A stretch of 64,000 nucleotides of DNA from an uncultured Peptostreptococcaceae bacterium (GTDB taxonomy: Bacteria; Bacillota; Clostridia; Peptostreptococcales; Peptostreptococcaceae), in contig CAMTIM010000046.1 in NCBI GenBank assembly GCA_947072565.1, positions 1 through 64,000 of the forward strand. The letters run 5' to 3'. The position numbers and the translations under genes were made by a program. Positions within the stretch are counted from its first letter, which is position 1, and every line of letters starts with the position of its first letter. Below are positions 60,345-64,000 of the stretch, in pieces. Below the pieces are notes generated by a model, which saw nothing but the letters and a program-made list of their open reading frames with translations, made no database searches and was not told the origin of the DNA.

Positions 60345-60629
60345 ATAATAGTTAGTTAAAAAGGGGTGATTTAAATAGATTATGAAGTAGTAGTTAAATA
60401 CAACGGAGATATATTAAAACTTGAAAGTTTATTAGGTGTATCTGTAGAAGTTTTAGGATATAACTATGCAATAATAACAGCTGATTCACCACAACAAATA
60501 AAGAGCCTTTTAGATTATCCAGAAATAGAGTATATAGAAAAACCATTTATACTACAAACTCAAGATACTCAAAGCTTTTCAAGTTCGGGTATAACGAAAT
60601 TTAAACAAAATAACAACTTAACTGGAAAA
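60345..60629 (+). repeat. Direct repeat, copy 1 (csp leader and 5' coding end)
   Basis: Bases 60345-60629 match 63716-64000 with 16 mismatches and no gaps (about 94%), counted by eye. The match starts 30 bases ahead of the AUA start codon, including the ribosome site, and runs through the prodomain; it stops only because the window ends. Several mismatches are silent, so the copies are under coding constraint. Confidence 0.95.
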
Positions 60630-63600
60630 GGAGTAATACTTGGAATCATAGACTCGGGTATAGATTATAATTTACCAATATTTAAAGATGAAGATGGAAA
60701 CTCTAAGATACTTTATTATTGGGATCAGTCAATACCAGGAAACCCTCCAGATGGTTTTAAAGAAGGGTCTTTATATACAAACAAAGATATAAATAAGGCT
60801 ATAGATGGAAAGCTTAAAATACCAATACCAATAACTAGTAGTCATGGAACTCATGTAAGTGGCATTTGTGCAGAGATAGCAAATGATGCGAGCATAATAT
60901 TTGTAAGGGTTGGTAGTAGAGTTACTGATTCATTTTCAAAGAGTACAGAGTTTATGAGAGCTATAAAATTTATATTAGATAAATCCTTAGAATTAAAAAT
61001 GCCAGTAGCTATAAATATAAGCTATGGAAGTAATGAAGGCTCTCATACTGGATTATCGCTATTTGAACAATATATAGATGAGATGTGTGATTTTTGGAAA
61101 AATAACATAATGATAGCAGCAGGAAACAATGGAGATAAAGGCGGACATAAAAATATAAATATTAAAACAAATAATAATAAAGAGGTAAGCGTTGAATTTG
61201 TTGTTGGGCCAGAGGAAAAGATATTAAACTTAAATATATGGCCAGACTTTACAGATGATTTTAGCGTACATTTAATAAGTCCATCTAATTTACAGACTCA
61301 GCCCATATCAAGAGACTCTGGAGAAATAAAAAATATCATAGGTAATACAAAGCTCAAGGGATATTTTTACCCAATAACGCCTTACTCTTTAATAAGACAG
61401 GTAACTATTCAGATAAGCTCAGGTGCCAGTATTACACCTGGAATATGGAAAATTGTATTTACACCTAAAAATGTTATAACAGGAAATGTTGATATATATT
61501 TACCAACAGCAGAACGTATTAGTAGAGATACTAGATTTTTAATACCAGATAGAGTGAGAACTGTTACTGTGCCAGGAACGGCTACAAAGCCTATAACTGT
61601 TGGAAGTTACAATTCAAGGACGGATAACGTATCTATATTTTCTGGAACCGGAGATATAGAAAATGGTATATATAAGCCAGAACTATTAGCCCCAGGAGAA
61701 GATATAGTATCTGTATTGCCAGGAGGGAATATAGGAGCATTGACTGGAACAAGTATGGCAACACCTCATATGACAGGATCAGTAGCACTTTTAATGGAAT
61801 GGGGAATAGTTAGAAGAAATGATTTATATTTATATTCTCAAAAGATGAAAGCGTTACTTATACAATATGCAAGAAGAAATCCGAACTATACATATCCAAG
61901 TAATTCTAGAGGATATGGTTTTTTAGATTTATCAAATATAAATTTAAACACTGTATTTCAAGAAATCCCAACAGATATCTTTATCAGAAAAAGTAAAAAA
62001 AATAAAAATAAATATAGATTAGAAAATGAATTAGAAGGGTTTGTACCTACACTTAACATACTTCATGGGCCAAATTTTGAAGAGGAATTTAAAAAATTAA
62101 ATACTCCATATAAATATTATAAAATAGCTGATGATTTTAGCATTATATATACTAAAGATCAAAATATAAAAGCATTAGAAAGTGTTTTAAATTTAGTCTC
62201 AGTAATAAGAGGTCAAAGGAATGTATGGGTAGCTCCACTAGGAGAAGTCAGTCAAGGAACATCAGGTGGAGTAGTAGCAAGCGAAGAGATAGGAGCAAAT
62301 TTTTTCAAGAATAATCCAAATATATCTATAAATGGAAAAGGGGTTATAATCGGGATAGCAGACTCTGGAATAGATTATTTACACGAAGATTTTATATATC
62401 CAGATGGTACGTCTAAGATAGTGTACTTATGGGACCAAACAAAAGATGGCAATCCACCAAAGGGTTATGCTATAGGAACTGAATATACTCGTGAGGATAT
62501 AAACAAAGCTATAGCAGCTAAAGATGATAGTTTATCAAAAGATGAAGAAGGCAGAGGAACAATGATAAGTGGAATATGTGCTGGACTTGGAAATATAAAT
62601 AAAGAATATGCAGGTGTAGCAGAAGAAGCAGAATTGATAATAGTTAAATTAAAAAAATTAAATGGTTTTTATAATAATGGGCTATTGTACGCAGCAACAA
62701 GCTATATACAAGAGAAAACATATAGGTCTAGTATACCAGGTATAGTTAATTTATCAGTAGGAAGTAATTCAATGTTAGGAGTAAGCTCTAGGATTCTTTC
62801 AGAAAAATATTTTTTTAAAAGAGGAGTATGTACTGTAACTGGTGTTGGTAATGAAGGTAATACACAAACACATGTATTAGGCAATGTTAATTTTAAGAAT
62901 GAAAAAAAATTTATAGATATAGAGTTAGCAGAAGATGAAAAAGAGATATACATAGAATTATGGGTTGATAGACCTGATAAAATAAATATTGCACTTGTAC
63001 CACCAACAGGAGAGGTAAGTAAAGAACTTGATGTATCAAACCTTGGCTTAGTACAGGGATTATTTGATTTAGAAAGGACTGGATATTCAATACAATACAT
63101 GTATCCAACCTCAGACTCAGGGCAACAACTAACTATTATAAGACTAACAGATGCTAAAAAAGGAATATGGAGGATCCAATTAATTGGAAAATATATAACT
63201 ACGGGAAGATATAATGCATATTTACAAAATAGAGTATTCTTAAAGCCAGGAACAAAATTTACAAAAACTGATCCATCATATACTGTAAATTATACTGCCA
63301 CATATGAAGATGTAATTTCGGTAGGTGCATATGATACTACGAATAATACCATATGGCCGACTTCATCAAGAGGACCAAGCATAAGTGAGTTAAGCAAGCC
63401 TGATTTGGTGGCACCGGGAGTTAATATAATAGCTCCGTACCCAGGAAATAAGTATGCAAAATTAACAGGAACAGCAGCAGCAGGAGCACATGTGTCTGGA
63501 GCTGTTGCACTGTTTCTTCAATACATTTTAGTTGATGGTAATTACCCAGATAAGGCTTTTGCTCAAAAGATAAGAACGTATCTAAGCTCTGGTGCAAAAA

Positions 63601-63683
63601 GAGATTCACAAATTTTATATCCAAATCAAACTTATGGATATGGAGAATTAGATATAAGAGGGATGTTTGATCAACTAAAGTAG
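60375..63683 (+). CDS. cspBA: CspBA: fused germination protease CspB and pseudoprotease CspA
   Basis: Two subtilisin-like units in one 1102-residue chain. Unit 1 has a prodomain (1-60) and an intact triad: Asp93 (GIIDSGIDY), His157 (SSHGTHVSG), Ser460 (LTGTSMATPH). Unit 2 keeps Asp663 (GIADSGIDY) but has Arg727 where His belongs (EGRGTMISG) and Ala1034 for Ser (LTGTAAAGAH), so it is a dead protease. That is the layout of CspBA of C. difficile-type spores, in which CspB cleaves pro-SleC and CspA is a germination cofactor. There is no ATG, GTG or TTG near the 5' end: the frame opens with ATA at 60375, right after an in-frame TAA, five bases after AAAAAGGGGTGAT. Confidence 0.92.
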   Translation: MDYEVVVKYNGDILKLESLLGVSVEVLGYNYAIITADSPQQIKSLLDYPEIEYIEKPFILQTQDTQSFSSSGITKFKQNNNLTGKGVILGIIDSGIDYNLPIFKDEDGNSKILYYWDQSIPGNPPDGFKEGSLYTNKDINKAIDGKLKIPIPITSSHGTHVSGICAEIANDASIIFVRVGSRVTDSFSKSTEFMRAIKFILDKSLELKMPVAINISYGSNEGSHTGLSLFEQYIDEMCDFWKNNIMIAAGNNGDKGGHKNINIKTNNNKEVSVEFVVGPEEKILNLNIWPDFTDDFSVHLISPSNLQTQPISRDSGEIKNIIGNTKLKGYFYPITPYSLIRQVTIQISSGASITPGIWKIVFTPKNVITGNVDIYLPTAERISRDTRFLIPDRVRTVTVPGTATKPITVGSYNSRTDNVSIFSGTGDIENGIYKPELLAPGEDIVSVLPGGNIGALTGTSMATPHMTGSVALLMEWGIVRRNDLYLYSQKMKALLIQYARRNPNYTYPSNSRGYGFLDLSNINLNTVFQEIPTDIFIRKSKKNKNKYRLENELEGFVPTLNILHGPNFEEEFKKLNTPYKYYKIADDFSIIYTKDQNIKALESVLNLVSVIRGQRNVWVAPLGEVSQGTSGGVVASEEIGANFFKNNPNISINGKGVIIGIADSGIDYLHEDFIYPDGTSKIVYLWDQTKDGNPPKGYAIGTEYTREDINKAIAAKDDSLSKDEEGRGTMISGICAGLGNINKEYAGVAEEAELIIVKLKKLNGFYNNGLLYAATSYIQEKTYRSSIPGIVNLSVGSNSMLGVSSRILSEKYFFKRGVCTVTGVGNEGNTQTHVLGNVNFKNEKKFIDIELAEDEKEIYIELWVDRPDKINIALVPPTGEVSKELDVSNLGLVQGLFDLERTGYSIQYMYPTSDSGQQLTIIRLTDAKKGIWRIQLIGKYITTGRYNAYLQNRVFLKPGTKFTKTDPSYTVNYTATYEDVISVGAYDTTNNTIWPTSSRGPSISELSKPDLVAPGVNIIAPYPGNKYAKLTGTAAAGAHVSGAVALFLQYILVDGNYPDKAFAQKIRTYLSSGAKRDSQILYPNQTYGYGELDIRGMFDQLK

Positions 63684-63715
63684 TCTCTAGTAGCGAAAAT
63701 AAATATACTCATGCC

Positions 63716-64000
63716 ATAATAGTTAGTTAAAAAGGGGTGATTTAAATAAATTATGAAGTAGTAGTTAAATACAACGGAGATATATTAAAACTTGAAAGTT
63801 TATTAGGTGTATCTGTAGAAATTTTAGGATATAATTATGCAATAATAACAGCAGACTCAACACAGCAAATAAAGAGCCTTTTAGATTATTCAGAAATAGA
63901 GTATATAGAAAAACCATTTATACTAGAGACTCAAGACACTCAAAGTTTTTCAAGTACAGGTATAACGAAATTTAAACAAAATAACAACTTAAGCGGAAAA
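63716..64000 (+). repeat. Direct repeat, copy 2 (start of the second csp gene)
   Basis: Partner of 60345-60629, offset 3371 bases. It lies 33 bases after the cspBA stop codon. It shows a recent tandem duplication or gene conversion of the csp 5' region. Confidence 0.95.
63746..64000 (+). CDS. Second Csp-family protease, 5' end (cut by window)
   Basis: The 85 visible codons encode a prodomain nearly identical to that of cspBA (NYEVVVKYNGDILKLESLLG, then YIEKPFIL) up to NNNLSGK just before the catalytic Asp region. The frame again opens with ATA directly after an in-frame TAA, behind AAAAAGGGGTGAT. In related genomes cspC follows cspBA; here the start is much closer to CspB than expected for an old paralogue, so it is either cspC with a converted 5' end or a second cspBA. 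The remainder lies outside the window. Confidence 0.85.
   Translation, partial: MNYEVVVKYNGDILKLESLLGVSVEILGYNYAIITADSTQQIKSLLDYSEIEYIEKPFILETQDTQSFSSTGITKFKQNNNLSGK

What the first reader, a model, noticed from the sequence alone, without database searches (positions are those of the whole stretch)
60345..63760. Both csp genes appear to start at an AUA codon
Seen: cspBA and its neighbour each have AAAAAGGGGTGATTTAA followed by ATA, with an in-frame TAA just before ATA and no ATG, GTG, TTG or CTG in frame until well into the protein (first ATG at 60954, past the catalytic Asp and His). The prodomain is fully in frame from ATA. AUA initiation is very rare in bacteria; known cases of AUU starts (infC, pcnB) are tied to IF3 discrimination. 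Two copies with the same arrangement rule out a single sequencing error. Inferred: low-efficiency initiation could keep protease levels down until sporulation.
Basis: partly seen in the sequence, partly recalled or inferred. Interest (0 to 1): 0.72.

Follow-up and report, generated by a model that had tools for sequence, protein, structure and literature searches.

The report
Germination protease gene starts at AUA
The gene for the spore-germination protease CspBA begins at the rare codon AUA instead of AUG, not only here but across most sampled genera of the Peptostreptococcaceae including Clostridioides difficile, which means the start used in the C. difficile literature is very probably three residues too early and the protein is probably made at a deliberately low rate.

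Summary
Confirmed and extended. Both cspBA copies (60375 and 63746) have an in-frame TAA directly before ATA and no ATG/GTG/TTG/CTG in frame until codon 194. In 63 distinct cspBA starts from 55 genomes of the same family, the same codon is ATA 44 times and ATC twice. In the other 17 it is always a canonical start (GTG 7, TTG 6, ATG 4), never GTA, TTA or the like. A strong Shine-Dalgarno (SD) sequence lies about 8 nt upstream (median -13.4 kcal/mol; only 3% of ATG starts sampled in this genome are as strong). Where an in-frame GTG lies three codons upstream, as in C. difficile, it is part of the SD itself and has no SD of its own (0 of 35). At least four lineages have no canonical alternative at all. 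So AUA is very probably the real, conserved start. It belongs to a known kind: infC keeps AUU here, a CcpN-like gene keeps AUU (29 of 30), and S. aureus ccpN, infC and citZ use AUA at roughly 10% of AUG strength (PMC13009471). A throttle on CspBA amount is the likeliest function (inferred). "Until sporulation" is not supported, because cspBA is already sigma-E dependent. I found no published report for cspBA.

The parts
60360..60370 (+). Shine-Dalgarno AAAGGGGTGAT of cspBA copy 1
   Evidence: duplex energy -14.3 kcal/mol with the 16S anti-SD
60366..60374 (+). GTG-ATT-TAA: the GTG lies inside the SD and its frame closes at once, so it cannot be the start here
   Evidence: in relatives such as C. 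difficile the same GTG is in an open frame and appears to be the start used in the literature
60375..60377 (+). AUA start codon of cspBA copy 1
60375..63683 (+). cspBA copy 1: CspB prodomain and protease with intact Asp-His-Ser motifs, fused to the CspA pseudoprotease; 1102 aa
60954..60956 (+). first in-frame canonical start (ATG, codon 194), past the catalytic Asp and His
63731..63741 (+). Shine-Dalgarno AAAGGGGTGAT of cspBA copy 2
63746..63748 (+). AUA start codon of cspBA copy 2
63746..64000 (+). start of cspBA copy 2 (continues to G000:C46:67045, outside the window), 87% identical to copy 1

Best explanation
cspBA is translated from an AUA start codon that has been kept for a long time in the Peptostreptococcaceae. 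Steps supported by sequence: AUA is the first codon of the protein; an unusually strong SD (GGGGTGAT or GGAGGTGAT) about 8 nt upstream selects it; the column holds only start or near-cognate codons in all relatives. Inferred: the ordinary initiator tRNA (CAU) pairs imperfectly with AUA, so initiation is inefficient even with the strong SD, and the protein starts with formyl-Met. The net effect is a throttle on CspBA synthesis in the sporulating mother cell, after sigma-E has switched the operon on, probably limiting how much active germination protease is loaded into the spore relative to CspC and pro-SleC. The C. difficile start used in the literature (GUG, three codons upstream) is very probably the SD misread as a start. 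The confidence given is for AUA being the start; for the throttle it is about 0.6.
For: Start column in 63 distinct genes: ATA 44, ATC 2, GTG 7, TTG 6, ATG 4, nothing else; internal hydrophobic columns change to GTA, TTA, GTT instead. No ATG/GTG/TTG/CTG between the upstream stop and the ATA/ATC in the window's genus (6 genes, 3 genomes), L029, L042/L148 and the paralogues L054/L139/L140. SD at column 1: median -13.4 kcal/mol in ATA genes (range -19.0 to -10.1), spacing 8 nt in most, the same as in relatives with canonical starts; the in-frame GTG has median -0.1 and is better in 0 of 35. Only 3% of ATG starts in the sampled part of this genome have an SD as strong. The blind scan that recovers cspBA also recovers infC with its AUU and a CcpN-like gene, which are known near-cognate starts. 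S. aureus AUA/AUU starts with extended SDs are real by Ribo-Ret and give about 10% of AUG reporter output (PMC13009471). One ordinary initiator-type tRNA(CAU) was found in this genome, so no altered initiator is needed.
Against: No direct translation data for cspBA were available (no N-terminal peptide, no ribosome profiling). ATA constancy alone is not exceptional: internal Ile column 34 is as constant (43 ATA, 2 ATT; 2 changes each). Some lineages have canonical starts at the same place (at least five changes of class on the tree), so the weak start is not indispensable. Throttling of CspBA is inferred; no measured protein levels were compared.
Confidence: 0.9

Rival explanations
1. The true start is the in-frame GUG three codons upstream, as C. 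difficile CspBA appears to be numbered in the literature, and ATA is merely residue 4 (Ile).
For: The frame is open to a GTG at this place in most of the ATA/ATC genes, including Clostridioides (35 rows). C. difficile numbering in the literature is offset by three (Q66 there is Q63 here).
Against: The GTG is part of the SD in each case and has no SD of its own (median -0.1 kcal/mol, better in 0 of 35). It is closed by TAA in the window's genus and absent or out of frame in at least three other lineages. Relatives have ATG/GTG/TTG exactly at the ATA column.
Confidence: 0.05
2. Assembly or sequencing error, or decayed genes, in this genome.
For: The window's genome is an 82-contig draft.
Against: Two copies here and four in two sister genomes have the same ATA and TAA; the frames are intact over 1098-1102 codons; ATA is conserved in tens of other genomes, several of them in one contig.
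Confidence: 0.01
3. Translation starts by coupling or reinitiation: ribosomes initiate at GUG, stop at TAA after two codons, and restart at the adjacent AUA.
For: In the window's genus GTG-ATT-TAA abuts ATA.
Against: Among the relatives read, the mini-frame exists only in this genus; its GTG has no SD; in other genera the frame is open or the GTG is absent, yet ATA is kept.
Confidence: 0.02
4. The AUA is the start but is neutral: the strong SD makes up for it and CspBA output is not limited by the start codon.
For: ATA genes have stronger SDs than the four genes with ATG (medians -13.4 and -10.7; U test p = 0.003 without correction for relatedness), which could mean full compensation.
Against: In S. 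aureus, AUA starts with extended SDs still give only about 10-30% of AUG (PMC13009471). A neutral weak start would be expected to return to AUG more often than is seen (4 of 63).
Confidence: 0.2

Closest known systems
infC (IF3) with its AUU or AUA start
   Same: Conserved near-cognate start, strong SD, no good canonical alternative. In this family infC typically reads TTGGAGGTGTCCTAC-N-AUU.
   Different: infC is autoregulated through IF3 in E. coli; cspBA is a sporulation gene with no known tie to IF3.
ccpN in S. aureus and B. subtilis (AUA) and its homologue in this family (AUU in 29 of 30)
   Same: Conserved near-cognate start with strong, extended SD; AUA mapped by Ribo-Ret in S. aureus (PMC13009471).
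   Different: ccpN encodes a metabolic repressor; in this family it keeps AUU, whereas cspBA keeps AUA.
E. coli pcnB (AUU)
   Same: A chromosomal gene limited by an inefficient start codon (Binns and Masters 2002, as cited in PMC13009471).
   Different: Different codon, gene and phylum.
C. difficile cspBA (CspBA, CD2247)
   Same: Orthologue; same SD type (GAGGTGATTATA) and ATA at the same column (L068, L153).
   Different: It appears to be numbered from the GTG three codons upstream; one copy with this prodomain in the Clostridioides genomes searched here, against two in the window's genus.

Membership tests
CspBA germination protease (NCBIfam NF040809) | full-length match above the curated cut-off | tested here: met
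   1826.7 bits against cut-off 1250, profile 2-1099 of 1099
CspBA germination protease (NCBIfam NF040809) | active CspB triad fused to an inactive CspA domain | tested here: met
   Asp93, His160 and GTSMATPH Ser motif intact by reading the sequence; second domain has RGTMISG and GTAAAGAH in place of the His and Ser motifs
genes with a conserved near-cognate (AUA/AUU) start codon | no canonical start available in frame near the protein's N-terminus | tested here: met
   window and at least three other lineages
genes with a conserved near-cognate (AUA/AUU) start codon | strong SD at correct spacing for the near-cognate codon | tested here: met
   -14.3 kcal/mol in the window; spacing 8 nt in 44 of 63 genes
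genes with a conserved near-cognate (AUA/AUU) start codon | conservation across genera | tested here: met
   44 ATA and 2 ATC of 63 distinct genes
genes with a conserved near-cognate (AUA/AUU) start codon | initiation shown by ribosome profiling, toeprint or N-terminal peptide | not testable with these tools
   needs an experiment
IF3-controlled start sites (infC type) | expression depends on IF3 level | not testable with these tools
   needs an experiment

The most novel reading that the evidence does not exclude
The AUA start is a regulated valve: CspBA output in the mother cell responds to the state of the translation machinery (IF3 level, initiator tRNA or free 30S subunits) late in sporulation, so spores made under different nutrient conditions carry different amounts of germination protease and differ in germination readiness.
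Probability: 0.2. Interest if true: 0.8.

Novelty: new member of a known kind. Interest (0 to 1): 0.6.

Why it matters
CspBA supplies both the protease that starts spore cortex breakdown and, through CspA, part of the bile-acid and co-germinant sensing complex of C. difficile. If it starts at AUA, the start used for C. difficile CspBA is wrong by three residues, and the dose of the protease is set by translation initiation. Studies that express cspBA from an engineered AUG may then not reflect the native amount. It also adds a sporulation gene to the short list of conserved near-cognate starts and shows that such genes can be found by combining SD strength with column conservation.

Tried and rejected
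Altered initiator tRNA: only one initiator-type anticodon stem-loop sequence with anticodon CAU was found; three one-mismatch sites are not tRNAs. AUA as a general start in this genome: rejected, a scan of 323 long ORFs gives cspBA twice, infC and ccpN (AUU) and one further good AUA candidate. mRNA structure around the start: none, z = +0.9. Rfam element upstream: none. Extension of AUA beyond the family: elsewhere in Clostridia the prodomain is longer at its N-terminus and the start lies elsewhere. ATA against ATT constancy as proof: weak alone, an internal Ile column is as constant. The Hecht 2017 paper on 64 start codons was not held.

Full report
Observation. At 60375 the sequence reads AAAAAGGGGTGATTTAA-ATA-GATTATGAAGTA, with TAA immediately before ATA; at 63746 the same arrangement recurs. 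Translated from ATA, copy 1 gives 1102 aa that match the NCBIfam CspBA model (1826.7 bits, profile position 2 to the end) and the Pfam CspB prodomain. The first in-frame ATG/GTG/TTG/CTG is codon 194 in both copies (60954 and 64325), past catalytic Asp93 and His160. The second gene is a full second cspBA (87% identical) that runs to 67042, followed by cspC.

Relatives. A protein search of the family found matches in 55 of 71 genomes. I read the codon in the column of the window's ATA for 63 distinct genes: ATA 44, ATC 2, GTG 7, TTG 6, ATG 4. Named records among them are Clostridioides difficile (ATA), Paraclostridium (ATA), Terrisporobacter (ATA), Intestinibacter bartlettii (ATA), Metaclostridioides mangenotii (ATA), Romboutsia lituseburensis (ATG), Asaccharospora irregularis (GTG, and ATA in a paralogue), and Tepidibacter thalassicus and Alkalithermobacter (TTG, GTG). 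Every alternative to ATA/ATC is a canonical start codon. Ordinary hydrophobic columns of the same genes drift to GTA, GTT or TTA. That pattern is what a start codon shows and an internal Ile does not. ATA being constant is by itself weaker evidence: internal Ile column 34 is as constant.

Which codon starts. In 35 rows with ATA or ATC the frame is open to a GTG three codons upstream. In C. difficile this appears to be the start behind published numbering (Q66 in PMC3567191 is Q63 counted from ATA). That GTG is the GTG of the SD (GGAGGTGAT). Its own upstream region has essentially no SD (median -0.1 kcal/mol), against a median of -14.1 for the ATA or ATC in the same genes, and it is better in none of 35. 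It is closed by a stop in the window's genus, and no in-frame canonical codon exists at all in L029, L042/L148 or the paralogues L054/L139/L140. The SD-to-column spacing is 8 nt in 44 of 63 genes, with canonical and near-cognate starts alike. AUA is therefore very probably the start throughout these lineages.

Strength of the site. ATA genes have a median SD of -13.4 kcal/mol (the window -14.3). Only 3% of ATG starts in about 390 kb of this genome reach -13.4. The four orthologues with ATG have weaker SDs (-6.8 to -11.9; U test p = 0.003, not corrected for relatedness). This fits a weak codon partly compensated by a strong SD.

How unusual. A blind scan for ORFs whose only good SD faces a near-cognate codon was run on 323 ORFs of this genome and 293 ORFs of a Clostridioides genome. 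On this genome it returned both cspBA copies, infC (AUU) and a CcpN-like regulator (HTH plus two CBS domains, AUU), plus a few weaker candidates. infC keeps AUU across the family, and the CcpN-like gene keeps AUU in 29 of 30 genomes with one AUA. Both are known near-cognate starts: S. aureus infC and ccpN use AUA, ccpN's non-canonical start is shared with B. subtilis, and three such S. aureus sites (cvfC1 AUU, ccpN AUA, citZ AUA) gave about 10% of AUG reporter output in poor medium, up to 30% for ccpN in rich medium (PMC13009471). The method therefore recovers known members of the class, and cspBA is a new one. The genome has one ordinary initiator-type tRNA with anticodon CAU among the sites found.

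Evolution. On a tree of the N-terminal 185 residues (start codon left out) the near-cognate class needs five changes. The Tepidibacter/Alkalithermobacter side has TTG/GTG throughout, and most of the rest has ATA. The direction of change is not determined by this count. Outside the family the prodomain is longer and starts elsewhere.

Function. Transcription of the csp operon in C. difficile is sigma-E dependent (PMC3789822), so the start codon is not needed to keep the gene silent before sporulation. The likeliest role is to limit the amount of CspBA made in the mother cell. This is inferred from the S. aureus measurements, not measured here. CspBA is cleaved by YabG into CspB and CspA, and CspC depends on CspA for stable incorporation into spores (PMC12880746), so the dose of CspBA could set both protease and sensor amounts.

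Novelty. Searches of the held library for cspBA with AUA, and for ATA or AUA start codons with Clostridium or bacteria, found no report of this; the library lacks most subscription journals. I file it as a new member of a known kind (conserved near-cognate starts), notable for the gene it sits in, its spread and the correction to C. difficile CspBA numbering.

Noticed in passing
G000:C44:15774-16400 (L235) and L234-L263: A CcpN-like regulator (HTH_11 plus two CBS domains) has a conserved AUU start in 29 of 30 family genomes and AUA in one, with SD of the type AGAAGGTGA.
   Followed up: yes
G000:C36:49059 (L184) and L156-L185: infC starts at AUU in nearly all the family genomes read (AUC in L181).
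   Followed up: yes
G010:C1:1033193 (L210) and L211-L213: A dipeptide-type ABC permease in four Clostridioides genomes has TTAGGAGGTGAGGAAA-ATA, with the next in-frame ATG or GTG about 22 codons on: a second possible AUA start.
   Followed up: partly
G000:C44:123844 (L264) and L265, L266: An endonuclease/phosphatase-like protein in all three genomes of the window's genus has GAGGAGTTGATGGCAT-ATA and, in this genome, no canonical in-frame start for 20 codons: a further AUA candidate.
   Followed up: partly
57249: The lysine/glutamate 2,3-aminomutase-like gene has AAAGGAGGTAAT-ATT about ten codons before its first nearby ATG; possible AUU start, not compared with relatives.
   Followed up: no
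60375-67042 of G000:C46: Tandem duplication of cspBA, both copies intact, present in all three genomes of the genus; other genera (Romboutsia, Paraclostridium, Asaccharospora) also carry second cspBA-like genes.
   Followed up: partly
60382-60390: An out-of-frame ATG-AAG-TAG sits seven bases after the first base of the AUA; it follows from the Tyr-Glu-Val codons and is not kept in all relatives.
   Followed up: partly
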